A stretch of DNA of 41,579 bases from Microscilla marina ATCC 23134 (lineage in GTDB: Bacteria; Bacteroidota; Bacteroidia; Cytophagales; Microscillaceae), in assembly GCF_000169175.1 (NCBI RefSeq), contig NZ_AAWS01000068.1:1-41579 (forward strand). The letters are read 5' to 3'. The position numbers and the translations under genes are program-made. Under the pieces are notes generated by a model, which was given only the letters and a program-made list of their open reading frames with translations, searched no databases and was not told the origin of the DNA. Positions 12,655-29,746 of the stretch are shown one piece after another. Each line of letters starts with the position of its first letter. Positions within the stretch are counted from its first letter, which is position 1.

Positions 12655-12715
12655 TGTTCATTGTAGTGGTGTTGTATTGCATGGCTTTGCCCAACCATCT
12701 AACCATACTTTTTTA
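12655..12715. repeat. Intergenic repeat, copy 2 (short)
   Basis: Holds GGCTTTGCCCAACCAT, close to the core of copies at 12150 and 14707, in the spacer between sheath and tube genes. Confidence 0.5.
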
Positions 12716-13927
12716 ACTTGGATTCACAAACCCCAAATCAATGGTGATTTTTTGCGCCATGCCCACGGGTTCAATGTCAATTTTCACCTTGAGCTCGGCA
12801 GTGGCAATCACGTCCTGGTCAGGGTCAATCAGCGGAGTGACCGAAGACACCTCTCCGTTGTTGGTCATTTGCAAGTCCAGGGCTTTTTTGATGTCCTGCT
12901 CAAACGCCTTCACCCTGGCCACAGGTAACTTGCCTTGCTCCAGCTGAAAATCGTCCAGGAGTTCCTGCACATACACATTGTAGGCAATGCGCGCCACCTT
13001 ATCTGCCACCCTGCCCCGGCCAATGCTGTTGTAGTCGGTGATGAGCGCAATGGCCACCGGGTCGCCGTTGAGGTAATACCCGGCACGGTTGGCAAAAGCA
13101 CGGGGGACAATGTAGCCGCGTTGGTGCAACAAGTTGAGGTTGCCCTGTCCATACTCTTCTACCGTTTTTTTAGGCGTAGCAGCCGTGACGATATACGCCT
13201 TTTGAATGCCTAAGTCGCCGTCTTTTACCCGCCCAATGTTGCGTTGCACAGGCACCCCGGCTACTTTGCCCAGTACCAAGCCCAGCCAACTGCCTTCGTA
13301 AGTATCGTCGTGCCAACCCAAACACACCGATACCCGGTTGGCGGTTTGAGTGCGTAAATTACTCACTGCCGAAGCATTGCCCTGAAAGTCGCGCCCTTCC
13401 AATATCACCTGCACAGGTTGGTGCAATGCCTGTTGAGTATTGATAAGTAGTTGGGCATTTGCCAAAGCCGCCAGGATATCAGGGTCTAACTCTTCGCTGG
13501 GGCTGGCGTTATACGCCGCATCGGGTACCCTGCCCACTCCCAATAGTTTGATGTTGCCTTGTTTTTGGTTGAGCAAATCAGGGGCATAGTTACCAGCGGT
13601 ATCCAGCATTTCTGCCATCGTTACTGTTTTGGGGGCAAGCATCAAGTAGAGTTCAGCTCCTTCACCCGCCTGACGGTAAAAGTCTACACAATGGGCGTAT
13701 ACTTTCAGCGAATTGCTGGTGTCATATTCGGCAGTAATGCCTTTTTTCTGCACATCTTTGATCCCGAAAAAGGGACCAATGACTGTCCCCAAATCAAACC
13801 CTGCATCCCCTGAAAGGGGCACGGCAACGCCCGAAAGCAGCATGGCCGCCACCCCGTCGTTGCTAAAACCCGCCCCGCCGAGTTGCCCATCCAGGTAATT
13901 GACCGAAACGTCTGGTAAGTTGTTCAT
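12713..13927 (-). CDS. Phage tail sheath protein (DUF2586 type)
   Basis: A 404-residue contractile tail sheath protein. It starts PDVSVNYLDGQLGG; the middle contains VQVILEGRDFQGN and TANRVSVCLGWHDD, and the C-terminal half has YIVPRAFANRAGYYLNGDPV followed by YNSIGRGRVADKVARIAYNV, features typical of the DUF2586 sheath family of Bacteroidetes Mu-like and related phages. The sheath surrounds the tail tube and contracts to drive it through the cell envelope. The gene is intact, with an ATG start at 13927 and the tube gene following 75 nt after its end. The presence of sheath plus tube establishes a myovirus-type tail. Confidence 0.88.
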   Translation of the reverse strand: MNNLPDVSVNYLDGQLGGAGFSNDGVAAMLLSGVAVPLSGDAGFDLGTVIGPFFGIKDVQKKGITAEYDTSNSLKVYAHCVDFYRQAGEGAELYLMLAPKTVTMAEMLDTAGNYAPDLLNQKQGNIKLLGVGRVPDAAYNASPSEELDPDILAALANAQLLINTQQALHQPVQVILEGRDFQGNASAVSNLRTQTANRVSVCLGWHDDTYEGSWLGLVLGKVAGVPVQRNIGRVKDGDLGIQKAYIVTAATPKKTVEEYGQGNLNLLHQRGYIVPRAFANRAGYYLNGDPVAIALITDYNSIGRGRVADKVARIAYNVYVQELLDDFQLEQGKLPVARVKAFEQDIKKALDLQMTNNGEVSSVTPLIDPDQDVIATAELKVKIDIEPVGMAQKITIDLGFVNPS

Positions 13928-14775: not shown

Positions 14776-14783
14776 ATTGAGTT

Positions 14784-15671
14784 TTACCCCACGATCGCTC
14801 CAACTGCCCGGTTAGCTTTGGGCAACGCCACATAGTACATGCGGAAGCCCACTTCGTGTTGGCGCAAACGAGGGTTGTTTTCAGAGCGCTGCCAGTACAT
14901 TTTTACCTCCCGGTCGCGTGCCTTAAACATCTCAGAATTTACAAAACCCACGCTGGCAATGCGGTCGGTGCCAGGGTTGTATAAGCTGCCAAAAGCTTTC
15001 TTGATGCCACTGTCGGCATAATAAGGCAAAGAGGTGTATTCGCCGATCATAAAGCCATACAAACGCAGGGGTTGCCCTTCTCTAATATTTGCGTATTGGT
15101 CACGAAAGCTTTCGTGGGTAGTAATCAAATCCTGGATGTGGGCAGGCGAAAGAATCAATTCCCTGCCTTGCTTGGGTACATTGTTATCATCCCAGCGTCG
15201 CTTGAGATGAGCCACATCGCCAGGCACCATGCGGTTACGGGTAATCCCATCTTCGCTCACGGCTTCGCCACTGGTCACAATCACCGGAGTGCGCGCGGTA
15301 TTGCTCGCCGGAGCAAAAGCGTGAATGGCTTTGTCGCCCGTTGCCTCGCGCATTGATTCGGTGTGCTTGGTGGTGGTTTCGCCCATTTTATCAATCGAAA
15401 TGGCGTACAAGGTATCGTCCGACACCGAGGTGTTTTCGGTGTCAAACTTGTCCAGGCTAATGGCCACATCCGAGTCTACATCGTTTACCGTAGCAATGGG
15501 GTAAGTACTGTTATTGATGAGCACCTTGGGGTCAGCCCCCAATTCGGTGAGGTGAATCACTTTGTTATTGACCAGATCGCTGCGATCCGGGATGCGATTC
15601 ATAAATGAAGTATCCTTTCTGAACTTGCGAATTACCTCACCCGTCCAGATTTCCTTATGAACTCCTGCCAT
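14784..15671 (-). CDS. Major capsid protein
   Basis: A 295-residue phage major capsid protein, predicted to have an HK97-type fold. It begins MAGVHKEIWTGEVIRKFR, followed by HLTELGADPKVLINNSTYP, a pattern typical of capsid proteins of Bacteroidetes Mu-like prophages. Later segments include DDTLYAISIDKMGETTTKHT (the E-loop/spine region) and MYWQRSENNPRLRQHEVGFR near the C-terminus. It follows the protease-scaffold gene, as in nearly all tailed phages. Length is normal for this group, ATG start at 15671, no sign of damage. 415 copies would be usual for a T=7 head, but the T number cannot be read from sequence. Confidence 0.85.
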   Translation of the reverse strand: MAGVHKEIWTGEVIRKFRKDTSFMNRIPDRSDLVNNKVIHLTELGADPKVLINNSTYPIATVNDVDSDVAISLDKFDTENTSVSDDTLYAISIDKMGETTTKHTESMREATGDKAIHAFAPASNTARTPVIVTSGEAVSEDGITRNRMVPGDVAHLKRRWDDNNVPKQGRELILSPAHIQDLITTHESFRDQYANIREGQPLRLYGFMIGEYTSLPYYADSGIKKAFGSLYNPGTDRIASVGFVNSEMFKARDREVKMYWQRSENNPRLRQHEVGFRMYYVALPKANRAVGAIVG

Positions 15672-15902: not shown

Positions 15903-17180
15903 TTAGAGCACTGGCTCAGTACCGTATTCCTTGCGGAACAGCTCTTTGTAAAGCACCGGGTTTTCGTTTTTGATCAGCATCAGTTTTTCCGGAAACTTGT
16001 TGGACAGTTCGCTAAAGCTTAACTCCTCAAAACCAGCACTTGCCCCGGCTTCGTTGCTGGTACCCATGGCCTTGATCTTACTGACCAGGTTGGGGTGGGT
16101 AGGCATATCGGCAAGCGTATCGCGCACCATGTCATAGTTGTCATAGGCGTGGTTAAGCCATTTTTCCTTTTTTACCGGAGCAATTTTCCCTTCTTTGATG
16201 GCATTCTCTACCAAGGCAATGGCTTCGTGTTTTTTCATTTCGGCTACCTCGTCGTGTAACCTTTTCTTTTCGTTTTCCAGGTTTTCGACATTGGTTTTGT
16301 AGCTTTCAATTTTGAGGTCAAGCGATTTAAGGCGTTTGATCTCGTTGCGAAGTCCTTCGACATGGCCAAGAATGCCGTCGCGTCCGGCATCGGTGGGTAG
16401 CCCACAGGCATTGAGCACAGCGGTCAGGTCGCCTTTATAGCCCAGCACCTCATTACGAAGTTGTTCTGCCTGTTCAGATGTTAAACTCATAGGGTGATTT
16501 GTATTTGTAGGTTCAGGTAAAAATTTTATGGGGTATTGATTGAAAATATCAAAGAGGCTTGCCACATCGTTTTCGGCAGCAGCCACTGATGTAGCCATGC
16601 TTTTCTTTCTGGGGTGTTCAAACACTTCATCCACAAAGCCTTGTCGTTTTGCCTCAGCTGCACTCAGCCAGGTCGTTTGGTTCATCATGGCTGATAGCGT
16701 ATCCACCTTTTGTCCGGTGCGGGTAGCAAGCAAAGTGAGCAACATTTCTTTGACCTGCATCAAGGTTTCGTGTTGCCCTGCCTCGTTGGGGTTAGTGCTG
16801 TTTTTGCCCCCAATAAAAGGGTTGTGGAGCATCAATTTGGCAAAATTGCACATGCCTACTTTTTTGCCGCATACCGCAATCAGCCCCGCAATGCTCAGGG
16901 CAAGCCCGTCTACATAAGTATCAATGCGCACCCCAGGCGTACTTTGGTTGATGTTGAGAATTGCAGCGCAAATAGACAAGCCATCAGTAATTTTGCCGCC
17001 GGGCGAGTTGATGCGTACATTGAGGCGGCGGTACCTTCGGGCAAGCGAGTACAGTTCTTTTGCAAACCGTTGCTCGGAGATACCCTTACCTTCTTCATTT
17101 ACCCCGATTTTGTCATAGAGTAAAATATGGGCAACCTCTCCTGCGGCGTTCCGAATGTCAAAATATTTGTATTCTTCCAT
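15903..17180 (-). CDS. Prohead protease (ClpP/S14-like) with C-terminal scaffold domain
   Basis: A 425-residue fusion of head maturation protease and scaffold. Residues ~15-190 form a ClpP-like serine protease: RINSPGGKITDG (57-67) is the substrate groove, Ser96 lies in DGLALSIAG and His119 in LMLHNPF, matching the nucleophile and general base of the family. After a linker, residues ~231-425 form a coiled-coil scaffold (KRLKSLDLKIESYK, ENEKKRLHDEVAEM) ending TEPVL. An in-frame ATG at 16490 (M231, MSLTSEQAEQ) could start a separate scaffold, as Mu gpZ is made within gpI. The protease processes scaffold and capsid proteins during head assembly. It follows the 92-aa gene by 10 nt and precedes the capsid gene. 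Confidence 0.85.
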   Translation of the reverse strand: MEEYKYFDIRNAAGEVAHILLYDKIGVNEEGKGISEQRFAKELYSLARRYRRLNVRINSPGGKITDGLSICAAILNINQSTPGVRIDTYVDGLALSIAGLIAVCGKKVGMCNFAKLMLHNPFIGGKNSTNPNEAGQHETLMQVKEMLLTLLATRTGQKVDTLSAMMNQTTWLSAAEAKRQGFVDEVFEHPRKKSMATSVAAAENDVASLFDIFNQYPIKFLPEPTNTNHPMSLTSEQAEQLRNEVLGYKGDLTAVLNACGLPTDAGRDGILGHVEGLRNEIKRLKSLDLKIESYKTNVENLENEKKRLHDEVAEMKKHEAIALVENAIKEGKIAPVKKEKWLNHAYDNYDMVRDTLADMPTHPNLVSKIKAMGTSNEAGASAGFEELSFSELSNKFPEKLMLIKNENPVLYKELFRKEYGTEPVL

Positions 17181-18330: not shown

Positions 18331-18631
18331 AACGAACGACTATTATTCATATACCTGCATAAGCCAGCAACGTCTTGCCCACCTAAAGGTCAAGACTGGA
18401 TTAACTACTACGATCTCGACAAAGGAGAGTGGCGCAAACTATACATCGTCCGTTTAAACGAATTGAATATTTTATTTGAGCCCGGTAAATGAGGAGTTTG
18501 AATACCACACCCTGCGCTTCAAAAAACTGAGTTATGAGGCAGTGAAACAACAAGCCATTGTTTACTTCGACCAACATAAAATACTTACTACCCTGCACCT
18601 AAAAAAGGTATTACGTGAAGCAAGTTATTGA
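18331..18631 (+). pseudogene. Frameshifted remnant of an unidentified gene
   Basis: Two adjacent plus-strand frames look like one broken protein. The first encodes GQDWINYYDLDKGEWRKLY, then IVRLNELNILFEPGK and stops at 18490-18492. The second, shifted, continues NEEFEYHTLRFKKLSYEAVK and ends LHLKKVLREASY at 18629-18631. Codon use and amino-acid composition are natural across the junction, and neither half has a good start. I do not recognise the family. A single indel near 18485 would restore the frame. The other ~190 nt up to the next gene at 18829 show nothing. Confidence 0.4.
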
Positions 18632-18828
18632 GCAACTAAGGATTCTACCAATGAACAGCCATGCTTAACTTATTATTCCCAAATAGGGAGTTTTTCTCTA
18701 AATGGTTATTTAACGCTTGTTCTTGTTAATTTAAATGATTAATAATCAATTGCTTAATCTCTTTGTTTGGTTTTTGCCAACTATCAAACTAAATACTTAA
18801 TACAAAATTTCACGATTAATCATTAACA

Positions 18829-19260: not shown

Positions 19261-19984
19261 TGTAGTATATATTGCCTGATTTGTAGTGCAATCATATACA
19301 ATCCAAGGGGCTCTTAACTTTTGACAAATAGTGTCAACGTTAGATAATTTGACACACATCTCCCAAGCGGGATTTTTTCTAACTTTTACCTTTAAAAAAT
19401 AACAAATTGAATAATATTTAATTAGCTTTAACACTGATCGCTTATTTAATCGATAAACAGGCAGAATTTGTTGTTTTCGCCCTACCCTGAGGGTCATTGG
19501 ACTCAGATGCGAGTCAATTCGAACAAGAAAGCTTCCAGGTAGCCATACTTTCAATACCTACCTCTACTTAGTCAGATGTTATTCCCCCGAAAGAACTCTC
19601 CCCAACACTACTACAGCACCTTGATCAGAAAGATAGTTTTACTTCAACAACAAAACAAAAGAAACTTTACCGTTGAAGCCACCTACTGCCCTTGGTATAG
19701 CCCTGATAAGATTGACATCAACCTAGAGAATTTAATGATTTCAATTTTTATGGTTTGTTTAAAGGATATTTTGTGATGTTTTATTCAATCCCTTGGCAAC
19801 AGTTAATTTTAAAAAGTTTTTACTTGGTTGAAATGTTAAAAAAAACAGCAAAGATATTTTAAATTACCAAAAAGAAACATACCTTTGCAATGCATAGCTG
19901 GTTAAAGGATCTTGGAGGATAGGTAGATGCTAATCTACTTTCCTTCAAGTTTTTTTTACTTTAGAGAGGGACAACTGGTGGTGT
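19261..19984. other. 724-nt gap, no convincing gene
   Basis: Several short open frames exist on both strands, none with family-like features. Structures seen: an inverted repeat GTGTCAA/TTGACAC near 19331-19354, an inverted pair GACTC/GAGTC near 19500, and a -7-like box followed by a hairpin and T-run (19880-19960). The sequence is A/T-rich. Confidence 0.4.
19880..19960 (+). ncRNA. Possible small transcript: TAnnTTTG box, then hairpin and T8
   Basis: TACCTTTG (19880-19887) matches the -7 consensus. About 45 nt later GTAGATGCTAATCTAC forms a 6-bp stem, followed by TTTCC and a run of eight T (about 19952-19959). A transcript of about 65 nt would have no coding capacity. No proper -33 TTG is in place, so this is weak; the hairpin could just be a stray terminator. 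Confidence 0.2.
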
Positions 19985-20695
19985 TTACTCCTTCTCTACC
20001 ACCTTCACTTTATACTTCCCCGCGAGTACATCGGTCAAAAAGACTTCAAACATATCTGCATTCCAACCTATTTTAAGTATTACTCCATCGCCATCACCAC
20101 GGCTTACTATCTGAAAGTAAAGCAATCGAAGCTGAGATAAAAACACCTGGGCAGTGGCGGCGGCTGAGTTCGGGAAAACTGTGTTGAGCTTGCCTTGCAC
20201 AGGTATTTTCGCTTTGGTTTCGTAATAAGCAAACAAAATGTCCAGCGATAGATCCAATGCTTCTATGATCTCCGGGTTTGCCTTTCCCCTGGCAGTGAGT
20301 TCTTCTTTGAGTTTGGCTGCCATAAAAGCAAAGAACTGTTCCAGGTCATAAGAGAGTGCCACCCCCACTTTATCTGCTGATTCCTTCAGAAATTGGATGC
20401 CACCTACGGCATATTTGCCCTCGATGAACACCGTTTTGGTGTCGCCCAAGGGCAATATTTGCCTGGTCTCTACACGGGCAAAAGTATCGGGTAGCACCTC
20501 CCGTAGTTTTTGGGTGAGCTTGTTTGCCACAAAACGAGGCAATACCATTTTTTCAGGGCTAAGTTTTTCATCCGGGGTTTTGCTTACCCGAATAATTTTG
20601 TGGCAACCTACTACCAGACAGGTTCCTACTATTAATACGCCCAATAGAAGCACTAGCCTTTTGTGTTTGGTTTTAATTTTTGTCTCAATGTTCAT
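19985..20695 (-). CDS. Lipoprotein, third gene of putative lysis-type cassette
   Basis: A 236-residue protein with a basic N-terminus (KIKTKHKR), a hydrophobic segment (LVLLLGVLIVGTCLVV) and a lipobox-like LVVGC with Cys31, so probably an outer- or inner-membrane lipoprotein. The rest is helical and soluble (KESADKVGVALSYDLEQFFA, AAKLKEELTARG). No family is recognised. It follows the two-TM holin-like gene by 33 nt on the same strand. In phage lysis cassettes a lipoprotein after the holin is often the outer spanin, but at ~205 mature residues this is much longer than usual spanins. A role in lysis or superinfection exclusion is inference. Confidence 0.55.
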   Translation of the reverse strand: MNIETKIKTKHKRLVLLLGVLIVGTCLVVGCHKIIRVSKTPDEKLSPEKMVLPRFVANKLTQKLREVLPDTFARVETRQILPLGDTKTVFIEGKYAVGGIQFLKESADKVGVALSYDLEQFFAFMAAKLKEELTARGKANPEIIEALDLSLDILFAYYETKAKIPVQGKLNTVFPNSAAATAQVFLSQLRLLYFQIVSRGDGDGVILKIGWNADMFEVFLTDVLAGKYKVKVVEKE

Positions 20696-20728
20696 AGTAT
20701 TTGTTTAAATTATAATTGATATGAAGTG

Positions 20729-20977
20729 TTATTCGTTGGTAGAGTTCATTCTTCTTGTAAAGAAATAGGTAGCAAGCATGGTCATCAAGGTGTTGATGGT
20801 TCCTACAATGCCTCCAATAGTGGGGTTATCTTTAGCGTTGAGTGAAGCAGGGTTGACTATGACCGTGATGGTGATGGCACAAAATGACACAATGATGGCG
20901 CACCCTACGAGAAAGGGTAAGAAGCTGAAGAACTTATCGCCTATAGCACGAGTAGTTTTTTTTATAAGGTTAGTCAT
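20729..20977 (-). CDS. Small two-TM membrane protein, holin-like
   Basis: An 82-residue protein with two membrane segments, about 16-42 (FFSFLPFLVGCAIIVSFCAI) and 53-73 (IGGIVGTINTLMTMLATYFF), a short polar link (NPASLNAKDNP), a basic N-terminus, and a basic/polar C-terminal tail (TRRMNSTNE). This is the class II holin layout. Its ATG overlaps the end of the upstream gene by 8 nt, implying translational coupling. Holins permeabilise the inner membrane to trigger lysis. No endolysin gene is in the window, so either the cassette is incomplete or the protein does something else. Confidence 0.5.
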   Translation of the reverse strand: MTNLIKKTTRAIGDKFFSFLPFLVGCAIIVSFCAITITVIVNPASLNAKDNPTIGGIVGTINTLMTMLATYFFTRRMNSTNE

Positions 20978-21593
20978 TGGTGTAACTTTTATACTTCAAA
21001 CCTTTAAACTTGCCATTAGCAGCATTGAATAGCGGAATAGCATTGTTTTTATAAATCTCAATAAAATCTGCCACAATACTCAATGCATTGTATGCCCTGA
21101 GTTTTTTATGTTTTTTTGTAGCTGAAGATAGTTCGTTGCTGATAGTTTTGACTGCCATAAGGGCAGTGCCTGAAACAATCAGGTCATAATAAGCAACTAG
21201 CCTGAGGTCAATGCCACTATGTTTTACCTTGTAATGATACCGTTCAAAGAACAACCTACGCAAGTGGTTATAAAACTTTAAAAACTCAGCATTGCTTTTG
21301 TCTTCCAGTTCCTCACCAAAAGGAATAACATTGTTTATAATGGTCTCGGTAAGAGCGCTAAATAAACACTCTGTGTAGACCTTAATGACTTGCTTATAAA
21401 ACTCATTTGCTGCTTTGCGTTGCTGTACATACATGTCTATATCAAACAAGAGCTGAATGACTGGATGCTCGGTGAGATTGATTTGTTTTACCTTACGCTT
21501 ATCTCTCCATTGGATAAACTTCTTTCTAAAAAAATCACCTGCCACGAATGTACTGATGATAACAGATACTCCATACTTGGCAATAAGCTCCAT
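20970..21593 (-). CDS. Membrane-anchored protein of unknown function
   Basis: A 207-residue protein with one N-terminal membrane segment (YGVSVIISTFVAGDFF, residues 6-22) followed by a basic patch (RKKFIQWRDKRKVKQ) and a long helical cytoplasmic domain (YVQQRKAANEFYKQVIK and others), ending YTND. No family is recognised. I chose the ATG at 21593 because AAAGAGG lies at proper Shine-Dalgarno distance, rare in this window; an upstream TTG at 21632 is less likely. It heads the three-gene minus-strand cassette and is divergent from the 160-aa gene at 21769. Confidence 0.6.
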   Translation of the reverse strand: MELIAKYGVSVIISTFVAGDFFRKKFIQWRDKRKVKQINLTEHPVIQLLFDIDMYVQQRKAANEFYKQVIKVYTECLFSALTETIINNVIPFGEELEDKSNAEFLKFYNHLRRLFFERYHYKVKHSGIDLRLVAYYDLIVSGTALMAVKTISNELSSATKKHKKLRAYNALSIVADFIEIYKNNAIPLFNAANGKFKGLKYKSYTND

Positions 21594-21768
21594 AGCGCCA
21601 ACCTCTTTTGTTTTAATAAATGAACAAATCAAAAATGTAGTATTACCTCCTAGTTTGGCAAACTGTGTATATCAAATGGTGATATTATGAGCATAGGTAG
21701 GTACTATGTTAGCATTCAATGTTTTTTTGTAAATTAGAGGTAGAAACACAAAATACTATGAACAAATA

Positions 21769-22251
21769 ATGAATAAGATGATAAAAGTGGATCAAGTAAC
21801 ACTTACAGAGTTAGAGCGGGTTATTGAAAGAGTTAACGACTCTCTTACTGAAACCCCTACTGAGCGAAGGCAAAACGACTTATTGCGTAATTTCAAATAC
21901 TTGCAGCGGATTAGGTATGGTTCTATGGCAATCATGAGTCAGGTATTAGCTTATAAGTATTATTACCGCCCTCGTTCAGTACACACTATAATTAATAGAG
22001 GACTTGATAAAATAGCTAATCCTGCATTTGTAGAGACAAAAATAAGTGTCAGTGAGCTTTTTACTATTAGGGAACACATAAAGTCATCGCCTTACTGGAT
22101 GGATGGTAAGCGGCGTCATCAAGATGTTCAGGCTGCTTTTATAAAGTGGCAAAGCTTAGGAGAAGTTAGCTTTGTATGTAGCTTGCTAGGTTACATATAT
22201 TACCTGCGCCCAAATACCGTAAGGTTGATTTTAAAGAGTAGCCAATTATGA
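21769..22251 (+). CDS. Internally duplicated 160-aa protein, unknown function
   Basis: A soluble protein with two related halves. Residues ~10-80: TELERVIERVNDSL, then RRQNDLLRNFKYLQ and YYYRPRSVHTIINR. Residues ~88-158: SELFTIREHIKSSP, then KRRHQDVQAAFIKW and YYLRPNTVRLILKS. The shared core is an alpha-helical unit with a Tyr-Tyr-x-RP-x(2)-V-x-x-I motif, which could be an HTH-like domain with the second helix ending at RP. No known family is recognised. The gene is followed by a 52-aa gene that overlaps it by ATGA, so the two are co-translated. Divergent from the membrane cassette; a regulatory role is a reasonable guess. Confidence 0.6.
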   Translation: MNKMIKVDQVTLTELERVIERVNDSLTETPTERRQNDLLRNFKYLQRIRYGSMAIMSQVLAYKYYYRPRSVHTIINRGLDKIANPAFVETKISVSELFTIREHIKSSPYWMDGKRRHQDVQAAFIKWQSLGEVSFVCSLLGYIYYLRPNTVRLILKSSQL

Positions 22252-22406
22252 AAAAAACAATGCATAATCCTGCCCCCATCAAAATCCCACTTGCCTGCAA
22301 AATATGGGGGCACAAATGGCAAGGCGACAGCCTCAAAAGGCGTTGTACCCGCTGTGGCAAAACCCAGGTATCGAGGTATTCGGTGGAGGGGTGGGTAGAT
22401 GTTTGA
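22248..22406 (+). CDS. Small zinc-ribbon protein (DUF1660-like)
   Basis: A 52-residue protein whose ATG overlaps the TGA of the preceding gene (ATGA), which decides the start. It has the pattern C-x(2)-x-GHKW then RRCTRCGKTQ: ACKIWGHKWQGDSLKRRCTR around 16-35. Short phage and prophage proteins of the DUF1660 group have the same C-x(2,3)-GHK/W ... C-x-x-CG layout and probably bind one zinc. Function unknown. The tight coupling with the 160-aa gene suggests they act together. Confidence 0.65.
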   Translation: MKKTMHNPAPIKIPLACKIWGHKWQGDSLKRRCTRCGKTQVSRYSVEGWVDV

Positions 22407-22506
22407 GGATTTTGGCAACTACATAAAGAAGCGCTTCAATAGACACTGAAACGCTTCTTTATTCAATGGGCTAATAAACTTGTAAGGTCTGGATACTTAA
22501 AGTTGC

Positions 22507-23299
22507 TTAATTACCTGTAATTTTAAAGTTAATGGGAATCATTTTTCTTGTCCTCGCTGTTACTCCTCTTTGCCTGGCAGGAATCCACTTAGGTCCTTCC
22601 TTGATTAAACGAATGGCTTCTTTGTCACACCCTGAGCCAATGCCTTTAAAAACTTGAAAGTTAGACAAACTACCGTCTTTCTCTACATAAAACTGTATGT
22701 AAACACGTCCTTCTACTCCCAGTCTACGAGCTTCGTCAGGATAGCGTAGATTTTTCTTAAGATAATCATATAAAGTATTTTTTGAATCTTATTTTGGGCT
22801 TTGCTATATGATCACTAATAAGAATAGCTGTTGATACTTCTTTGGTGTCATTTCATGAAGTGTCTATCATAAATAATCTACGGTTTAGCCACACGTTTGC
22901 TTTACCATCTTTAAAGTTCGATGCATTACTGTATTTGAAGGGTAAAACCGTTTTTCCTTGTGAATTGATATAACCATAAAGCTCTGATTTTTTTGCTAAA
23001 ATCAATTGACTATCAGGGTTAGGGACTGATATCATTTGATATGTAAAACCTGTAATGCCGTTACCATCAGTAGTATATAATGCATATTTCTTGTCTTTTA
23101 TAACAATCAATCTTTTACTGTTTTTCAGAGAGGCTACTCTGATATAGTCATATTTGGCAGGTATTTTTACTTTACCATTTTTATCTTTATACCCCCACTT
23201 GCCCTGTGCATTTTGAAACGTTGTAGCCTTTTGAGCTAAAGAGGTGTGATCAAGGGTACATAAAAAACAAAGTAAAATAATAAAAAAATGTGTTCTCAT
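22507..23299 (-). pseudogene. WG-repeat/TonB C-terminal-domain protein, broken by TGA and a frameshift
   Basis: The 5' part (23299-22853) is a clean 148-residue frame with a signal peptide ending SLAQ and WG repeats (GKWGYKDKNGKVKIPAKYD, LYGYINSQGKTVLPFKY), ending FMIDTS then TGA. Reading on past the stop gives NDTKEVSTAILISDHIAKPK; one base later a second frame opens (DSKNTLYDYLKKNLRYPDEA) and encodes a full TonB C-terminal domain (GVEGRVYIQFYVEKDGSL, FKGIGSGCDKEAIRL, MIPINFKITGN) to the stop at 22507. So a GGA-to-TGA change (DTSGN is common in WG repeats) plus one extra A near 22790 explain everything. WG-TonB fusions occur in Cytophagales as envelope proteins. The short product may still be made and exported. 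Confidence 0.75.
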
Positions 23300-23502
23300 T
23301 GTTTGATAGTTTTGGTGAATACTGCTTACACTAGTCAGAAACTTATTTTAACTATAAATATTTATTGGAATCGGACAAAATCAAATGAATTCTATCTTTA
23401 ACTTTATTTGCTATTGTACTCTGACCTTTGTTGTTTTTTGTTGGGTTTTTATGCCAGAGGTGGTTAATAGGCAGTTATAACCACCCCTTTATTATACATT
23501 TC

Positions 23503-23691
23503 CTATTCTTGTTTTTTTGTAAGAATGATCTTTTCAGCAGAAAAAGGCTTGGAATATAGATTATCTATCCCATCAATCGTCAATGCTACTGGCAAATACC
23601 AACCTGAAAATACCCACAGAGGTGCGCTTTTGTAGTGCTTGGCTCTGTTAAATATCTTTTTGAAATTTTCTGGCAGGGATTGCTCACTCAT
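23503..23691 (-). CDS. Small protein of unknown function
   Basis: A 62-residue protein starting MSEQSLPENFKK at 23691. The ATG overlaps the TGA of the preceding short frame as ATGA, which favours this start over a longer in-frame extension. It has one moderately hydrophobic stretch (APLWVFSGWYLPVALTI) and no known motif. Nothing in the neighbourhood defines its function. Confidence 0.4.
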   Translation of the reverse strand: MSEQSLPENFKKIFNRAKHYKSAPLWVFSGWYLPVALTIDGIDNLYSKPFSAEKIILTKKQE

Positions 23692-23871
23692 TTCAAATTC
23701 ACAGGAGGTGCAGCGGGTAGCAGCCTTCTTTTTCTCAGAGGAAAAATTAAGAAAAGAAGACCTGCAAAGGTAAAAAAAGTAGTCATCAGGGTTGTACCCT
23801 CTTCTCCGCAATTAGGGCACTGTTCAGGTATATCATAAGTATCAAATTGAGCCTATCAAGGAATTCTTCAT
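23688..23871 (-). pseudogene. Frameshifted small membrane protein with CPNCG zinc ribbon half
   Basis: A minus-strand frame encodes DTYDIPEQCPNCGEEGTTL, one membrane segment (FFTFAGLLFLIFPL) and a basic end (RKRRLLP), stopping at 23688. Its frame has no start, but an ATG at 23871 (MKNSLIG) lies one base out of phase, so a single indel near 23855 would give a ~60-residue protein. It overlaps the next gene by ATGA. Alternatively translation starts at the internal ATG (MTTFFTF) to give 33 residues. Confidence 0.35.
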
Positions 23872-23909
23872 AGTTTCTAATAATTATATACCGTTTTTTG
23901 CTATGTTCA

Positions 23910-23982: not shown

Positions 23983-24462
23983 CTATCTTAAATTGAAACC
24001 TAGATTAACTCCACCAATCTTCTCCCTTTCCACCTGCGCCCCATAATCCTTGTAACTCATTTCATAGCTTTGCTCCACCCTGTACAAATAGCCGTTGCCA
24101 TTCACGGTGCGCCTGCTTGTTTGGGTAAGCGTACCAAACTTACCCGATTGCCAACCGTGGAGCTGGGCGGTGATGACTTGGGAGAGCAACAGTATACCTT
24201 TGCCTGTGGTAACCTTGGTCCCGGTGGTAGTGGGACGGTAGTCTTTGCAACCAAGGTGCAGGGTAAAACTAGACTTGACCAGTAGCACCTTGTCCCCCAG
24301 TGGGCTGGTGTCTTCGCGGGTGATTTCCAGGTAGGCGGCAGGCAAAGGGTAAGGAAATTTTTCGCTGGTATTATCAAATTGTCCTTCCCACAAGTTAAAA
24401 TGGCGGATGCCTACTTCAGGAGATTTTAGCCGAGCTTCCAGTGCGTTGTATAAATTGATCAT
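23983..24462 (-). CDS. Phage tail terminator-like protein (Mu gp37-like)
   Basis: A 159-residue protein starting 2 nt after the gpG-like gene. It begins MINLYNALEARLKSPEVGIR, then has FPYPLPAAYLEI, a beta segment (SSFTLHLGCKDYRP) and RVEQSYEMSYKDYG near the C-terminus. Proteins of this size and alpha-beta layout, encoded just after the gpG/gpS-like gene, act as tail terminators that cap the tail and join it to the head (Mu gp37, P2 gpR). Assignment is from position and general pattern. It is the last gene before the accessory block. Confidence 0.55.
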   Translation of the reverse strand: MINLYNALEARLKSPEVGIRHFNLWEGQFDNTSEKFPYPLPAAYLEITREDTSPLGDKVLLVKSSFTLHLGCKDYRPTTTGTKVTTGKGILLLSQVITAQLHGWQSGKFGTLTQTSRRTVNGNGYLYRVEQSYEMSYKDYGAQVEREKIGGVNLGFNLR

Positions 24463-24464: not shown

Positions 24465-24953
24465 CTACTTAAATACTTTGTCTAACTCTACACTTACAAA
24501 ATCTTCAATGGCTGCCCAAAGTTCCGGAGGGAGTGGTTCTTTACCTGGAATGGGCATAAATTGTCGTTGGGGCAGGTGGGCGTGCCTACGGTGGCTACGT
24601 ACCCTTACCGAGCCGTTACGCCCCCTCCGGGTATAGGTGCGAACGGTCGCAGCGCCTTTAGCCCCTTCATTGTGGAGCTGGGCAAGGTGAACGTTGCCAC
24701 TTGCTGCCTGCCGATCGCTGCCCACCCTAATTACTCGCCAATTGGCTTCTCTTACTTTAAAAGAAGCTTTGAGTTTGCCAGTATCATTAAGTAAAGGTTT
24801 GCGGTTGTTGGGGTTTTGGCGGGGTTGCCAGGCGCTGCCCCGGTACGACTCACTGGCAAAATTGCCTTGAACATAGCGCAGCATTAGCCGTCCTATCCCC
24901 TGGGGCACCCCACGCATCACTTTTCTAAACTTTCGCTCGTTGATCATCAGCAT
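24465..24953 (-). CDS. Virion morphogenesis / tail completion protein (Mu gpG-like)
   Basis: A 162-residue basic protein of the phage virion morphogenesis family (Mu gpG, P2 gpS). The diagnostic core is LLNDTGKLKASFKV (about 54-67), then VGSDRQAASGNVHLAQLHNE, then an Arg-rich region (RTYTRRGRNGSVRVRSHRRH) and PQRQFMPIPG. The N-terminal (ERKFRKVMRGVPQGIGRLM) is helical. These proteins take part in tail completion or head-tail joining. Start ATG at 24953, 56 nt after the portal stop; an ATG 6 nt downstream is equally possible. Confidence 0.8.
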   Translation of the reverse strand: MLMINERKFRKVMRGVPQGIGRLMLRYVQGNFASESYRGSAWQPRQNPNNRKPLLNDTGKLKASFKVREANWRVIRVGSDRQAASGNVHLAQLHNEGAKGAATVRTYTRRGRNGSVRVRSHRRHAHLPQRQFMPIPGKEPLPPELWAAIEDFVSVELDKVFK

Positions 24954-25009: not shown

Positions 25010-26863
25010 TTAGAGTTTGATGAGTGTCTTGTTACCCCTACCATCACTGTATATCGCTTCGCTTAGAGATAGCTTGATTGGTTGCTCAAGTTGAGTCAAA
25101 GTATATTTCTTTGCTGTTCCCTTTTTAATAAAAGCAATGGTGGCGTGGGGCTGGTAGGTTTCATACTGCAAAGTATGTTTGAGCTCCGCCTTTAATGCTT
25201 CGTGGAGTGCTACCAAGGCAGGGCTTGTCACCTCAAACTTAAGTACTTCATAGTCCTTGTCCTTTTGCTCAAACACCGAAATCGCGGTGAGTTGTACCTC
25301 AAGCGCTTTTTGGGTAGCAGCAGAAAGCAACGCTTCAAGTTTTTTTGAGGCATTGGGCAAGGCGTGTAGCCCATACAAGGCAGTGATGTGAGGCGTGTCT
25401 TCATAGCCGTAGACTCCAGCCTTGGGGCAGATGTATAAGTCGTGTACTTCGATGTCTGGCAGTAGGCTTGCCCATAGCTTTTTATCTCTAATGGGCAGGG
25501 TCACCGATCCATACTTAAAAAAGTCCTGGTTTTTGGCAACTTCGACATTAGTATCAAGATTACTCGTACTATCCACTTGATTGCCTGTTTCCTGATTAGC
25601 TTCAGAATCCGTGGCAGTGTTAGTGTTTGTATCATTCTCAGCATTCTTTTTTACTACTGCCTTCATATTTTGGTCTACTGGCAAGGTTGCCTTCTTTTTT
25701 ACCTTGATTCCCGTAGCTTTTTCAAACTCGGCAGTGCTTACCTCAAAATGGCTCAGGGCAAGCTCCAGGGCTTTCTCAGAGATACTTTTCTTTTGGCGCT
25801 GGAGCTCGCGTAGGTAAGTATCCAGAAAAATAAACGAATGCCCGGTAAACGGGTAATTGAAGTCCAGCAGGCGGGGAAAGAGTTCTTCATTCACTACCGA
25901 CTCTACCCTTGCCATATCGTATTCTCTGATTTCTTCGCTGGGCGTTTTGGCAATGCTGTCTTTATTCATGTAGGTTTGGGCACCGCCATCGGTATCATTG
26001 CTTAACTTGACGTGCCCCTGAATGATTTTGAGCAGCTTCTTGCTTGCCTTCTCATCCATTTTGTCAAAGGTATCAACGGTACCACCCCCTCCGGAGGGAA
26101 AAGCAACCTCTACCTTTTCTTCAATATCAAACACTCCATTGAGCTCTTCTTCTACATTCAGTAAGGCATCCAATACTTCACGGCGTTCTTCCCCTTCCTT
26201 GTCGGTATGCACTATTTTGTAAGGCTTGCCATAATCCCGATTAAATTCAGCGTGCTTTACCAAGGCATCTCTGCTGAGAATGGCATAAGGAGCCGCGTAC
26301 AACAGCAAGCCCAGAGGAAAGCGTTTGCTATGGCAGAAGATGTACCAACGCTTCAGATAATCGGCGCTAAAATCAATGCCTTCCTGATAGGCAGAGAAAG
26401 GGTAAGGCAGTACCAGCTTCCGAGAAGGAATAATGTTGCGTCGCTCAACGGTGTTGATTTCTTTGATTGAATAGTTATCATGTAAATCTTGCCCTATCTC
26501 AATCAGCGAGTAACCAAAAAACTCTGCATCGAGCACCGCATTGATGAAATCATCGAACCAACTGCCTCTTAATTTTTTGGTGGCAACCTCCTGATAATTA
26601 CCGTCAGGGTCAAGCACCAGAAAAGGCTCACCCAGTACTTTGTTTTTGCGGTTGTTGATGGCGGTGATTACTTCGGCATCGATGCACACCATATCATAGA
26701 CTTCCATCAAAGGATAGGTGCGGGGCATTACTGGGCTTTCGGCAATGCGCCAGGCTTGCATCCAGTCGGCAATGGTTACCCGGTCCCTGCCGTATTGAAA
26801 CACTGAGGCAAAAGCGCTCAGGTGATGAGCAGCAGTAGCTCGTTTTTTTGTTTTTTTAGACAT
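25010..26863 (-). CDS. Portal protein (DUF935, Mu gp29-like) fused to a 2H phosphoesterase domain
   Basis: A 617-residue fusion, started at the ATG at 26863 (MSKKTKKRAT); a GTG 45 nt upstream is in frame. Residues 1-~390 are a DUF935-type portal (TIADWMQAWRIAESPVMPR, CIDAEVITAINNRKNKVLG, LDAEFFGYSLIEI, KHAEFNRDYGKPYKIV). The portal forms the dodecameric ring through which DNA enters and leaves. Residues ~395-450 are a low-complexity linker (Asn/Thr/Asp). Residues ~455-617 are a second domain with two H-x-T motifs, H492-I-T (DTPHITALYGLH) and H573-A-T (QPHATIAFIKKG), the signature of 2H phosphoesterases such as LigT and the phage anti-CBASS enzyme Acb1. Both catalytic histidine/threonine pairs are intact. 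Portal proteins with fused Acb1-like domains are known in another portal family. Degradation of a cyclic nucleotide signal is inference. Confidence 0.8.
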   Translation of the reverse strand: MSKKTKKRATAAHHLSAFASVFQYGRDRVTIADWMQAWRIAESPVMPRTYPLMEVYDMVCIDAEVITAINNRKNKVLGEPFLVLDPDGNYQEVATKKLRGSWFDDFINAVLDAEFFGYSLIEIGQDLHDNYSIKEINTVERRNIIPSRKLVLPYPFSAYQEGIDFSADYLKRWYIFCHSKRFPLGLLLYAAPYAILSRDALVKHAEFNRDYGKPYKIVHTDKEGEERREVLDALLNVEEELNGVFDIEEKVEVAFPSGGGGTVDTFDKMDEKASKKLLKIIQGHVKLSNDTDGGAQTYMNKDSIAKTPSEEIREYDMARVESVVNEELFPRLLDFNYPFTGHSFIFLDTYLRELQRQKKSISEKALELALSHFEVSTAEFEKATGIKVKKKATLPVDQNMKAVVKKNAENDTNTNTATDSEANQETGNQVDSTSNLDTNVEVAKNQDFFKYGSVTLPIRDKKLWASLLPDIEVHDLYICPKAGVYGYEDTPHITALYGLHALPNASKKLEALLSAATQKALEVQLTAISVFEQKDKDYEVLKFEVTSPALVALHEALKAELKHTLQYETYQPHATIAFIKKGTAKKYTLTQLEQPIKLSLSEAIYSDGRGNKTLIKL

Positions 26864-26901: not shown

Positions 26902-27519
26902 CTACCACCCTTTATAATCATTCCCCCGGCTATCCTGCCTGTCGTTGCCAGGTTTCACTTTCCCACCCGCAATCAGTATCCCCCGGTCCCCCGGAGGTTC
27001 TTGAGGCAACTGTGTAGGACGTTCGTTTTTCATATACACCTTGCACCAGGCAATCGCGTCGTCATAGAATTGCCTAAACTGACTGGCAATCTCTACGGGG
27101 CTATTGGCAGGAACCACTCTATAAAGAGCAATGTCTACGGCAAAATCACGTACAATCGTACTGCGGGGATCGGTGGTCAGGGGCTGCCAATAAGCAGGGT
27201 TATCGCTGGATGGAGTAATACCTTGGTTGGCTTTCACTGCCCTATAATATTGAACCTCTGGAGGCAGGTTGGTGTCCCCCACAGCGTTTACCCACGCCAG
27301 TTCCCCCGCCGCAAAGCTTTGGCCAGTGCCGTTATAGGCAAACAGTCGGATAAATATTTTTGGCAACGAAGACCGGGCAGCCATGTACTCCCCCATTTCT
27401 TCGATGGCCGATTTTTGGGCTTCGGCAAGCTTGCCCCAATCCCCTTCTATAAAATCAAGCAAGTCCGCCTCGCTTAACCTTCGGCGGTAGTCGTAGCGGT
27501 GTAAAAAGTTAGAATGCAT
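26902..27519 (-). CDS. gp36-like (DUF1320-type) head-tail joining protein
   Basis: A 205-residue protein started at the ATG at 27519, inside the last codons of the terminase gene (11-nt overlap); an upstream frame extension lies wholly within terminase and is unlikely. The N-terminal part (LSEADLLDFIEGDWGKLAEA, then IEEMGEYMAARSS) and the C-terminal helices (DFAVDIALYRVV, QFRQFYDDAIAWCKVYM) fit the DUF1320/gp36 family, whose members act as head completion or connector proteins. Between them sits a ~70-residue insert (YNGTGQSFAAGEL to AYWQPLTTDP) that is not usual for the family. It ends 39 nt before the portal start. In Mu gp36 lies after the capsid, so the order here is rearranged. Confidence 0.6.
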   Translation of the reverse strand: MHSNFLHRYDYRRRLSEADLLDFIEGDWGKLAEAQKSAIEEMGEYMAARSSLPKIFIRLFAYNGTGQSFAAGELAWVNAVGDTNLPPEVQYYRAVKANQGITPSSDNPAYWQPLTTDPRSTIVRDFAVDIALYRVVPANSPVEIASQFRQFYDDAIAWCKVYMKNERPTQLPQEPPGDRGILIAGGKVKPGNDRQDSRGNDYKGW

Positions 27520-29128
27520 CTTTTGATCGTTTTCTTGGTACAGTTTGCGTTTTGCGTTGGCTGGTGCCCTTCCCTCTGAACTTCTTGTATGCTTTCGCAA
27601 ATTTTGCCACAAAAAAGTAGCGCAAGGCATCTGAAATGTGCCCAAAGGGTTGGTAGCGAATTTTGAGTTTGGTGTCTTCGATCGTTTTCTTGCTGATGGT
27701 GCCATCCTCCGCCTCTTTGGTGTATTCAAACTCCCGAATCACCGTTTTGCAACGAGCTTTGTCTACGTGTACCCGAATGCCATAGCTCTGCTTTTCTAAG
27801 ATCAGGTTGATGAAGTCCCCACTCTCCGAAACCCCTGGTGCCTTGATCAGCACCATATCACGCAGGCTGGTAAAGTAAGGTTTGAGCTGCTCAAAAATCA
27901 CCTTAAAATCGGAGCGCTTGTCCCTGGTTTTGGTTTGCTGGTTTTTGCCCGATGGATCACCGTGGATATAGATTCGCCCCTGGTGGGATTGGTATATTTT
28001 CAAAAAATCCTCACAAGTATGAGGGGTGGTGTTGCGAGGGGTTTTATTAAGTATCTCGTCTAAAATATACACATCAATCATTCCTTCCTCTGGGCGTACA
28101 AATACCTGAATGACTACGCAAGTCACATAAGGGTGCACATTGAAATCCCAGGTAATATCCAGGGGGTGGGCAGGGTCATACACTGCATCGTAATAATGTC
28201 CCGTATGCACGCTGGCGTCCCATTGTTTCCAAAACTCGCCTCCACTTTTGGCCAGAGGGTCACCATAAATCAGCATCCCGTGCCGATGAGAGGCAAGGTT
28301 GGCTTCCTGTTTTTCTATATAGTTGGAGGGCAGGTTTTTGAGGTTTAGGTGAGTCGCCGAAATCACTACAAACTTAGAGTCCCCGCCTACTTTCTTTTTA
28401 AAGTACTGGGGTGGATTGTAAATCTTTGCCTTGATTTCTTCTTCATACTCGCTCAACTCAAACCAATCGTTGATCCAGGGCACCTTGGCAGGTGATGTAA
28501 AAATATACAAAGGATTAAAAGGGAGGTTAGCGACTACAGGGCTTCCTTCATCATATTCCTCACTAGTAAGTGCCTGTGTTGCCTCACTGATATAAAGCCC
28601 TTGTTGGCGAAGCCTTCCTAGAATTACCTCCTGCACGGCTTCCTCACGGGTGTCCTTGGTTTCATCCAAAATCGCCCAGGCAAACTCTTTCCCATCGTGG
28701 GCTTTGTAGTTTTCCAGGCTACCAATGAACACCACGCAGCCATTCCAAAAACTAATCTTGTTGCGGTAACTCTTAAAAGCGTGCCCTTCCCGGCTAAAGT
28801 GCCTGGGGGGTTGGGTACCCACCACATAGTCGCCCTGCCCCAGGTATTCGTCATATTCTTCCAACCCCAAATCTTTCCAGACCAAAAAGACCCGGTACAA
28901 GGTAGAGTCAGTGAGCTGCATATCGGTGTTGGCGCCCATAAAACCAAACACTCCGGGAAAGTTGGTAATCAAACGAAACGAGATTAAACCAGCCCCGTGC
29001 GTTTTGCCTGCTCCCTGCCCCGCCATAAACAAGTTGACCGGGGTGCGTGATGCATAAATATCAAACTGGGGCTTACTGGGGCGAACGATGAGTTTGGCAG
29101 AAGGAGAACTATTTTTTTTAGTTGCCAT
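27509..29128 (-). CDS. Terminase large subunit
   Basis: A 539-residue DNA-packaging motor and nuclease. Walker A is AGQGAGKTH (G37-T43, K42), Walker B AWAILDE (D155, E156). The nuclease half has ITWDFNVHPY (D328) and IYIHGDPSG (D391), the acidic positions expected of the RNase H-like fold. Overall length and motif spacing are normal, so it is probably functional. The enzyme translocates phage DNA into the prohead through the portal using ATP and cuts concatemers or flanking DNA. It follows the small subunit gene by 18 nt and overlaps the gp36-like gene. Confidence 0.92.
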   Translation of the reverse strand: MATKKNSSPSAKLIVRPSKPQFDIYASRTPVNLFMAGQGAGKTHGAGLISFRLITNFPGVFGFMGANTDMQLTDSTLYRVFLVWKDLGLEEYDEYLGQGDYVVGTQPPRHFSREGHAFKSYRNKISFWNGCVVFIGSLENYKAHDGKEFAWAILDETKDTREEAVQEVILGRLRQQGLYISEATQALTSEEYDEGSPVVANLPFNPLYIFTSPAKVPWINDWFELSEYEEEIKAKIYNPPQYFKKKVGGDSKFVVISATHLNLKNLPSNYIEKQEANLASHRHGMLIYGDPLAKSGGEFWKQWDASVHTGHYYDAVYDPAHPLDITWDFNVHPYVTCVVIQVFVRPEEGMIDVYILDEILNKTPRNTTPHTCEDFLKIYQSHQGRIYIHGDPSGKNQQTKTRDKRSDFKVIFEQLKPYFTSLRDMVLIKAPGVSESGDFINLILEKQSYGIRVHVDKARCKTVIREFEYTKEAEDGTISKKTIEDTKLKIRYQPFGHISDALRYFFVAKFAKAYKKFRGKGTSQRKTQTVPRKRSKDAF

Positions 29129-29146: not shown

Positions 29147-29641
29147 TTAATCCTCTTTTTTGTGTGGATTTTCGATCATTACCTGAAAACTTTTGGTAGT
29201 GATTTCCCCTGAGTGCTCTAATTTCTGCTTGCCATAGCCCAGATGCCCTCCTCGAGCTCCAAGATAATCTACAATGGCTTTGGTATCAGGTGGGAGGTAC
29301 TTTTTTACTTTAACAATTTTAAAATCATTTTTCCCTAATCGTACCACGACTTCTTCTTCATAAGTCATCCCTTGTATTCTTTGTAAAAGTTTACTTTCGG
29401 CAAACTCACAAGATACATCTCTAACGTCCCGCCTAATTGCCTGGAGAAACTTTTCATCGTTTTCCAGCCAACGGTAGACAGAGCCACGGTTAACTTTTGC
29501 CATGTCACAAGCAGTTTGAATAATGCCTAGGCTTTTTTCCATAGCTTTTAAAAAGTCAGCTTTCTTTTGGGCAGTTGATCGTTGATTTCTTTGGGTAGGC
29601 GGTTGAGAAGTGTTAAGTTTTTTCTGAGTGTTTTTGTTCAT
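29147..29641 (-). CDS. Terminase small subunit (HTH)
   Basis: A 164-residue protein, started at the ATG at 29641 (MNKNTQKKLNT) rather than a GTG at 29674. An N-terminal HTH reads DFLKAMEKSLGIIQTACDMA then VNRGSVYRWLENDEKFLQAI, followed by a helical assembly region (FAESKLLQRIQGM) and PPDTKAIVDYLGARG. This is the usual layout of small terminases of Bacteroidetes phages: recognise the packaging site and stimulate the large subunit. Family name by pattern; the large subunit gene follows at once. Upstream lie a sigma70-like promoter and palindromes. Confidence 0.8.
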   Translation of the reverse strand: MNKNTQKKLNTSQPPTQRNQRSTAQKKADFLKAMEKSLGIIQTACDMAKVNRGSVYRWLENDEKFLQAIRRDVRDVSCEFAESKLLQRIQGMTYEEEVVVRLGKNDFKIVKVKKYLPPDTKAIVDYLGARGGHLGYGKQKLEHSGEITTKSFQVMIENPHKKED

Positions 29642-29664
29642 AGTGTTTATTTTCAAACCCTGAT

Positions 29665-29746
29665 ACGTGCGCACGCATGTAAGTCCGTCTCGATCGTCTC
29701 AAGACCGTTGGTTTATAAATATACAAACACTATAAAGAAAAGTCAA
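29665..29746 (-). promoter_or_regulatory. Putative promoter and operator region of the terminase operon
   Basis: On the minus strand TTGACT (29741-29746) and TATATT (29718-29723) are separated by exactly 17 nt, a canonical sigma70-like spacing though not the Bacteroidota consensus. Downstream in the leader are a direct repeat GAGACGATCGAGACG and a 10-bp palindrome CGTGCGCACG (29666-29675), possible repressor sites. The promoter call is tentative. Confidence 0.35.

What the first reader, a model, noticed from the sequence alone, without database searches (positions are those of the whole stretch)
25010..26863. Portal protein carrying a C-terminal 2H phosphoesterase: possible virion-borne anti-CBASS enzyme
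Residues ~455-617 show two H-x-T motifs 81 residues apart (PHITALYGL and PHATIAF), the LigT/2H signature shared by Acb1, which destroys cyclic oligonucleotide alarms of CBASS. A polar low-complexity linker separates it from a DUF935 portal. Fusion to the portal would place 12 copies at the DNA entry vertex, or let the enzyme act when portal protein is made late in infection. Known portal fusions to Acb1-like domains involve a different portal family, so this may be a separate invention.
Basis: partly seen in the sequence, partly recalled or inferred. Interest (0 to 1): 0.75.

Follow-up and report, generated by a model that had tools for sequence, protein, structure and literature searches.

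The report
Phage portal with built-in nucleotide-cutting enzyme
Prophages of a marine bacterium make a DNA-entry (portal) protein with an apparently intact nucleotide- or RNA-cutting enzyme fused to its end; this may blunt host defences, and fusions of this enzyme type to phage portals have been reported before.

Summary
ORF 26863..25010 (-) joins a Mu-type portal (PF06074, E 1.8e-43) to a C-terminal 2H phosphoesterase (PF13563, E 1.3e-10) with H492-x-T and H573-x-T; AlphaFold2 gives a confident 2H fold (pLDDT 90). All 5 Mu-type portals found in this Microscilla genome carry it, as do 2 of 3 in a congener, under purifying selection (dN/dS 0.14).

The anti-CBASS reading is possible but not shown. 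The domain misses the Acb1 cut-off (25.3 against 27 bits) and the RNA 2',3'-cyclic phosphodiesterase cut-off. Of 29 scanned fused relatives, 3 have lambda-type portals but 11 have tRNA CCA-adding enzymes, which favours RNA-end work. For it: an Acb1-like residue pattern by the active site and a type III CBASS operon in the genome.

2H fused to portal or MuF, and its use against nucleotide signalling, are already in print (PMC5512222, PMC9503650). What looks new is a Mu-type portal carrying 2H where kin carry MuF, with no MuF over the Pfam cut-off in the genome. Verdict: real, a new variant of a known kind; substrate undecided.

The parts
25010..26863 (-). Mu-type portal protein with C-terminal 2H phosphoesterase domain, 617 aa (stop included)
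25706..26707 (-). Portal_Mu (DUF935, PF06074) domain, residues 53-386
   Evidence: 149.6 bits; genome coordinates
25538..25699 (-). polar linker, residues ~389-442; highest dN/dS of the three parts (pooled 0.275)
25013..25537 (-). 2H phosphoesterase domain, residues 443-617
25382..25390 (-). first catalytic motif H492-I-T494
   Evidence: H and T invariant in 70 of 70 rows of A4
25139..25147 (-). second catalytic motif H573-A-T575
   Evidence: H and T invariant in 70 of 70 rows of A4
26902..27729 (-). head-tail adaptor of the Mu gp36 type (start uncertain)
27509..29128 (-). terminase large subunit (weak profile match, genomic position)
29147..29674 (-). terminase small subunit
   Evidence: phrog_309, 3e-14
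24465..24953 (-). Phage_tail_S / tail completion (gpG-like), directly after the portal where several relatives have MuF
   Evidence: compare
23983..24462 (-). phrog_6911 protein of unknown function, last gene of the module shared by the five elements
15903..17180 (-). head maturation protease
14784..15671 (-). major capsid protein
12713..13927 (-). tail sheath (contractile tail)

Best explanation
A Mu-type portal whose C-terminus serves as an effector slot. Related long portals carry a MuF domain there, in two of three cases followed by a further domain of toxin or nuclease type; here it holds a 2H phosphodiesterase with an intact active site. Shown by computation: the fusion, the fold, the catalytic residues, maintenance by selection in seven copies, and no MuF over the Pfam cut-off in the genome. 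Inferred: it is a counter-defence part that opens phosphodiester or cyclic phosphate bonds in host-made nucleotide signals (cyclic oligonucleotides of CBASS or type III CRISPR type). It would act mainly as fresh portal protein late in infection, when abortive defences fire; in the virion the portal C-terminus should face the capsid lumen (recalled from other portals), so action on entry would need release.
For: Fusion and fold. Catalytic H/T invariant in 70 of 70 aligned domains; an Hx[TS] pair kept in 72 of 72 extracted domains. All 5 portals found in the genome and 2 of 3 of the congener carry it. 2H dN/dS 0.136, portal 0.049, linker 0.275. Effector slot: L198 portal-MuF, L199 portal-MuF-CdiA_C, L193 portal-MuF-PBECR2 (PBECR2 below its cut-off); no MuF over cut-off in the genome. 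Signal-cleavage lean: the first three PDB sequences are Acb1 entries 9q2g and 9q2y (one BCSR5 protein in two forms) and 7t26; profile match to T4-type Acb1 96.9%; six residues before the second His there is Phe, Tyr or His in 70 of 70 family rows and 8 of 8 Acb1 rows but 1 of 17 chromosomal 2H, the position of Acb1 F107, a base-stacking residue; F89 invariant where Acb1 has W74. The genome holds CD-NTase, HORMA, TRIP13 and SAVED-CHAT genes. No RNA ligase or CCA enzyme among the window ORFs that were scanned.
Against: Acb1 profile below cut-off (25.3/27 bits for the domain). Best PDB fold match is Usb1, an RNA exonuclease. In predicted viral structures the best matches are other phage 2H proteins (4e-12, 7e-12), Acb1-named ones coming at 7e-5. 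Best NCBIfam match is RNA 2',3'-cyclic phosphodiesterase, itself below cut-off. 11 of 29 scanned fused relatives carry CCA tRNA nucleotidyltransferase, pointing to RNA ends. Acb1 lid residues not found conserved (by eye). LigT-like PDB chains score almost as well as 7t26. The -6 residue was singled out after seeing the sequences. Not all ORFs of the window were scanned. The portal normally stays in the capsid, so delivery is unproven. A CBASS operon in a lysogen does not show that the phage meets it.
Confidence: 0.4

Rival explanations
1. RNA-end enzyme: the 2H domain opens 2',3'-cyclic phosphates on tRNA or other RNA cut by host defence nucleases, as part of RNA repair.
For: 11 of 29 scanned fused relatives join the domain to a CCA tRNA nucleotidyltransferase; one of them (L078) also has a tRNA ligase CPD match over its cut-off elsewhere in the protein. 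Best NCBIfam match is TIGR02258 RNA 2',3'-cyclic phosphodiesterase. PMC7824862 assigns jumbo-phage 2H enzymes to 2',3'-cyclic phosphates and RNA repair (passages).
Against: No RNA ligase, kinase or CCA enzyme beside the portal fusion among the ORFs scanned. The CCA fusions, with two free-standing rows, form a supported set (98/93) without the portal clade, though a joint clade of CCA and Mu-portal rows is not rejected (p 0.21). TIGR02258 cut-off missed.
Confidence: 0.3
2. Structural stand-in: the domain replaces MuF in head assembly at the portal and its enzyme activity is secondary or lost.
For: It sits where MuF follows or is fused in several relatives, and the genome has no MuF over cut-off.
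Against: Catalytic residues are invariant in all copies and across the distant family. The domain has a higher dN/dS than the portal. Free-standing relatives are common (49 of 92 ORFs are 260 aa or less, two of them cut by a contig end).
Confidence: 0.15
3. Usb1-like RNase effector that attacks host RNA, a counterpart of the PBECR or CdiA_C domains on other portals.
For: Best PDB fold match is Usb1. Sister portal architectures end in CdiA_C or a weak PBECR2 match. Proposed in PMC5512222 (passage).
Against: Fold rank alone does not give specificity: TM 0.63 against 0.57-0.61 for several other 2H enzymes. No immunity gene was looked for.
Confidence: 0.1

Closest known systems
2H domains fused to portal or MuF in phages (PMC5512222, PMC9503650)
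   Same: 2H phosphoesterase fused to a phage portal; proposed packaging and action on host nucleotide signals or RNA
   Different: The passages read do not say which portal family; Fig. 5B and the supplements were not seen. Here it is the Mu type (DUF935) with no MuF detected.
Acb1 (T4 gp57B, FBB1 Acb1, BCSR5 Acb1 9q2g)
   Same: 2H fold, HxT pair, aromatic or His six residues before the second His, aromatic at the W74 position
   Different: Below the Acb1 Pfam cut-off; 17% identity over 100 columns; a KKGxxxKY stretch after the second motif; no conserved lid Trp/Glu found; fused to a portal, whereas T4 57B is a separate gene
RNA 2',3'-cyclic phosphodiesterase (LigT/ThpR, TIGR02258)
   Same: 2H fold and motifs, best NCBIfam match
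   Different: 31.7 bits against a cut-off of 65.7; part of a phage portal
Mu-type portal fused to MuF (L193, L198, L199)
   Same: DUF935 portal with a long C-terminal extension
   Different: MuF, in two cases with CdiA_C or a weak PBECR2 match, instead of 2H
phrog_113 (portal family of PHROGs)
   Same: Its profile holds a stretch matching residues 75-173 of the 174-residue domain (4.6e-17), so that set probably already held at least one such protein
   Different: Annotated only as portal protein

Membership tests
2H phosphoesterase superfamily | two Hx[TS] motifs | tested here: met
   H492-T494 and H573-T575
2H phosphoesterase superfamily | 2H fold | tested here: met
   AlphaFold2 pLDDT 90.2; the 36 PDB matches at E<=0.001 are 2H proteins by title or general knowledge
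2H phosphoesterase superfamily | profile over curated cut-off | tested here: met
   PF13563 41.9 (whole) and 45.4 bits (domain), cut-off 27
Acb1 (PF23474) | profile over curated cut-off | tested here: not met
   21.8 bits whole protein, 25.3 domain, cut-off 27
Acb1 (PF23474) | base-stacking aromatics and adenine Glu/lid (Y12, W74, F107, W147, E141) | tested here: inconclusive
   W74 position Phe in 70 of 70, F107 position Phe/Tyr/His in 70 of 70; E141/W147 counterpart not seen by eye; Y12 not covered by the alignment
Acb1 (PF23474) | cleavage of CBASS cyclic nucleotides | not testable with these tools
   needs assay
RNA 2',3'-cyclic phosphodiesterase (TIGR02258) | equivalog cut-off | tested here: not met
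   31.7 bits, cut-off 65.7
Mu-type portal (PF06074) | profile over cut-off and place after terminase and adaptor | tested here: met
   149.6 bits; gene order
Mu-type portal (PF06074) | assembles as portal in virions | not testable with these tools
   needs particles or induction
Phage polyvalent protein (PMC5512222) | two or more effector domains in one polypeptide | tested here: not met
   only portal plus one enzyme domain found

The most novel reading that the evidence does not exclude
Mu-type prophages have exchanged the MuF domain at the portal C-terminus for a signal-degrading 2H phosphodiesterase that disarms type III CBASS, making the DNA-entry vertex itself a counter-defence device, invented apart from the lambda-type portal-2H fusions.
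Probability: 0.15. Interest if true: 0.7.

Novelty: new variant of a known kind. Interest (0 to 1): 0.42.

Why it matters
If active, it ties a required virion part to counter-defence. The MuF-to-2H exchange on the same portal type gives a direct test of whether the portal C-terminus is an effector slot. The wider family, which also fuses to CCA-adding enzymes, offers a testable split between signal cleavage and RNA repair in phage 2H enzymes.

Tried and rejected
Close relatives of the domain or of the whole protein in IMG/VR: none confirmed. In plasmids: no match to the domain. The whole-protein search of phage records matched 57 records; all 40 rows shown match the portal part only. The domain alone finds 13 phage records; I read six of them: five uncultured megaphage stretches and Maribacter phage Colly_1, five free-standing and one (L025) with a longer C-terminal part. 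A portal alignment was too diverse to scan with, so the portal census used genomes. The full-length fold from five near-identical rows was poor (pLDDT 35.3) and is not used. The quick tree was not optimal: constrained trees scored higher. It is superseded, from which nine long or near-duplicate rows were dropped. The idea that the other four elements are packaging-only satellites was rejected when capsid and sheath genes turned up farther off or on another contig. PADLOC has no match for the domain, which says little, as it lists defence rather than counter-defence proteins. A wider motif ending in Tyr or Phe (67 of 70 family rows, 6 of 8 Acb1, 0 of 18 chromosomal) was set aside for the single -6 residue: its Tyr/Phe at -3 is common to 16 of 17 chromosomal proteins, its last columns were in the search pattern, and for L001 the tested segment did not reach the second motif.

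Full report
Observation. Window 25010-26863 (-) encodes 617 aa. Pfam finds Portal_Mu at 53-386 (1.8e-43) and 2_5_RNA_ligase2 at 489-595 (1.3e-10); Acb1 (1.7e-4) and LigT (1.1e-3) fall below their cut-offs for the whole protein, while for the domain alone LigT passes (24.2 against 23.3 bits) and Acb1 does not (25.3 against 27). The catalytic motifs are H492-I-T and H573-A-T. An HMM made from 67 relatives without the Microscilla rows scores the domain at 146.6 bits, against 8.2 for the best of 1000 shuffles. The AlphaFold2 model has mean pLDDT 90.2. Its PDB matches include human Usb1 first (3.3e-6), a poxvirus cGAMP phosphodiesterase (1.5e-5), phage BCSR5 Acb1 (6.3e-5), YjcG, a cyclic phosphodiesterase, LigT and FBB1 Acb1 (2.6e-4). 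Among predicted viral structures the first two matches are free-standing phage 2H proteins (4.1e-12, 7.1e-12); the first Acb1-named one comes at 6.9e-5. Fold is settled; specificity is not.

Copies. The window is a whole 41.6-kb contig of a 9.77-Mb genome. The genus is taken as Microscilla because its congener G395 holds contigs of the same lengths (11226 and 19984) as the named records of L110 and L109. All 5 Portal_Mu genes found in this genome carry the 2H domain, and 2 of 3 in G395 do. In Bacteroidota, 44 of 395 genomes hold Portal_Mu. A profile of the five own domains matches 1 of 395 genomes, the own one; the broader A3 profile matches 18 of 395, the matches in the other 17 lying in open frames of 218 aa or less. 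A 2H HMM over the 34 loci L168-L201, which do not include the own-genome copies, hit only the two G395 fusions L200 and L201; portals without a locus were not scanned this way, but none of them outside the own genome has an open frame over 520 aa.

Effector slot. In three of four annotated relatives looked at, terminase, adaptor, portal and a MuF or gp7-type gene follow each other (MuF confirmed by Pfam in L160 and L163; the adaptor place is only a misc_feature). In the fourth, FPSV-S1, the next gene is a 253-aa protein annotated as gp29-like, not MuF. Here gpG follows the portal directly. No MuF passes its cut-off in the genome (best 15.3 bits, cut-off 29.6, on C16 some 65 kb from that contig's portal). 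The three other Portal_Mu frames over 600 aa end in MuF: L198, L199 (plus CdiA_C, 32.6 bits, cut-off 26.6) and L193 (plus PBECR2 at 20.1 bits, cut-off 27.1). So 2H sits where MuF sits in kin. That it is a functional slot is inference.

Selection. Over seven copies (5 plus 2), pooled dN/dS is 0.049 for the portal, 0.275 for the linker and 0.136 for 2H. The catalytic residues are identical in the five own copies. Linker dS is 0 between the window and C4, though portal dS is 0.22, which suggests recombination.

Wider family. An alignment with megaphage and Maribacter phage proteins found 374 relative stretches in IMG/VR, of which the best 80 were kept, and 12 loci in genome contigs: 92 loci. In 49 of 92 the stop-to-stop ORF is 260 aa or less, two of these being cut by a contig end (L055, L095); 43 are longer. 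I scanned 29 of those 43 by Pfam, plus L109 and L110; 12 were not scanned, several being near-copies. Of the 29, 11 carry a CCA-type nucleotidyltransferase (PolyA_pol with its RNA-binding domain) and 3 a lambda-type portal: L101 (phrog_10963 1.5e-19), L112 (phrog_21 4.1e-48) and L114 (phrog_21 2e-41), whose Pfam portal scores are below cut-off or absent. Others carry LPD38, LPD1 or a LigD-type primase over cut-off, or ParB or RelA/SpoT matches below cut-off. An Hx[TS] pair is present in 72 of 72 extracted domains; 20 of the 92 loci, mostly near-copies, were not extracted. The A4 alignment (70 rows: the window plus 69 of these 72) has H, T, H, T invariant. The KKG stretch is conserved too, but it was in the search pattern, so that count is biased.

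Acb1 or RNA? For Acb1: PDB sequence search with A4 lists Acb1 chains first (6.6e-7 and 7.3e-5, both BCSR5; 2.9e-4, 7t26), with LigT-like 2fyh and 1vdx close behind (4.9e-4, 5.5e-4); hhalign to eight T4-type Acb1 gives 96.9% over 100 columns at 17% identity. Six residues before the second His stands Phe, Tyr or His in 70 of 70 family rows (34, 27 and 9) and Phe or Tyr in 8 of 8 Acb1, against 1 of 17 chromosomal 2H proteins. In Acb1 this is F107, a base-stacking residue (PMC9117128, passages; match by spacing). The residue was picked after seeing the data. Against: below the Acb1 cut-off, no conserved lid residue found by eye, best fold match Usb1, best NCBIfam match RNA 2',3'-cyclic phosphodiesterase, and the CCA fusions. 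The careful tree (77 rows, rooted on Acb1 by my choice) has a long, fully supported branch between Acb1 and the rest, and puts the Mu-portal clade in a supported set (96/94) with free-standing and CCA-fused domains, away from the lambda-portal ones. AU tests reject none of: Mu plus lambda portals p 0.066, Mu plus CCA 0.21, Mu plus Acb1 0.35. The place of the clade is open.

Host context. The genome has a CD-NTase over cut-off in an operon with cyclase (5e-166), HORMA (3.3e-7), TRIP13 (1.7e-101) and a SAVED plus CHAT effector, next to a caspase-like gene: a type III CBASS by content (type label recalled). This makes an anti-CBASS role sensible but is not a test.

What is in print. PMC5512222 (passages read) reports 2H fused to MuF or portal, says these versions were never seen with RNA ligases, and proposes an Usb1-like RNase or nucleotide-signal degradation. 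PMC9503650 (passages) says portal- and MuF-fused 2H may be packaged and counter SMODS and CRISPR signalling. PMC7824862 (passages) places jumbo-phage 2H and CCA enzymes in RNA repair. Paper searches (listings, beyond the papers named; passages of one more) showed no paper on a DUF935-2H fusion; none of the 10 listed papers contains DUF935. Figures and supplements were not seen. phrog_113 already contains a matching stretch.

Verdict. A real, conserved, probably active enzyme domain on a portal. The general kind is known; the Mu-type portal with 2H in MuF's place is a variant. I lean to nucleotide-signal cleavage (0.4) over RNA-end repair (0.3), chiefly because no repair partner was seen among the neighbours scanned.

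Noticed in passing
G000:C49 (L154:5911-11902): Type III CBASS-like operon in the host genome: CD-NTase, HORMA, TRIP13, SAVED-CHAT effector, with a caspase-like gene alongside.
   Followed up: partly
window 17200-23900 and G000:C4, C16, C9: The late operon is split: capsid to portal is about 9 kb in the window but about 64, 60 and 78 kb on C4, C16 and C9, apparently at the same place. On C4 the gap holds ORFs that by eye look like restriction-modification, transposase and secreted proteins. A fifth portal (C45) and a fifth capsid gene (C63) lie on separate contigs.
   Followed up: partly
L007:5332-12388 (G000:C4): Families of four or five direct repeats of 127-300 nt, 1.4-2.1 kb apart, left of the packaging module; stretches like window 17740-17980 match in all six other elements examined, several times in the four own ones. 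Possible cargo cassettes.
   Followed up: partly
L036, L044, L050, L051, L056, L065, L068, L078, L081, L087, L096: IMG/VR proteins fusing a CCA-type tRNA nucleotidyltransferase to this 2H family, some with ART-PolyVal or GNAT domains.
   Followed up: partly
L199:1243-3573, L193:214-2664: Mu-type portals with MuF plus CdiA_C, or MuF plus a below-cut-off PBECR2 match, at the C-terminus.
   Followed up: partly
L001 (G000:C5:112768-113217): 991-aa host open frame with a strong 2H match (1.8e-35); its flanks look by eye like an endonuclease/exonuclease domain and a nucleotidyltransferase.
   Followed up: no
window 25538-25699: Linker without synonymous differences (dS 0) between the window and the C4 copy although portal dS is 0.22; C9 and M152 also share a linker type: sign of recombination among copies.
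   Followed up: partly
window 9206-17180: Tail set looks incomplete: sheath, tube-like and hub genes but no long tape-measure ORF in this stretch, then a C5 DNA methylase at 9206-10267.
   Followed up: no
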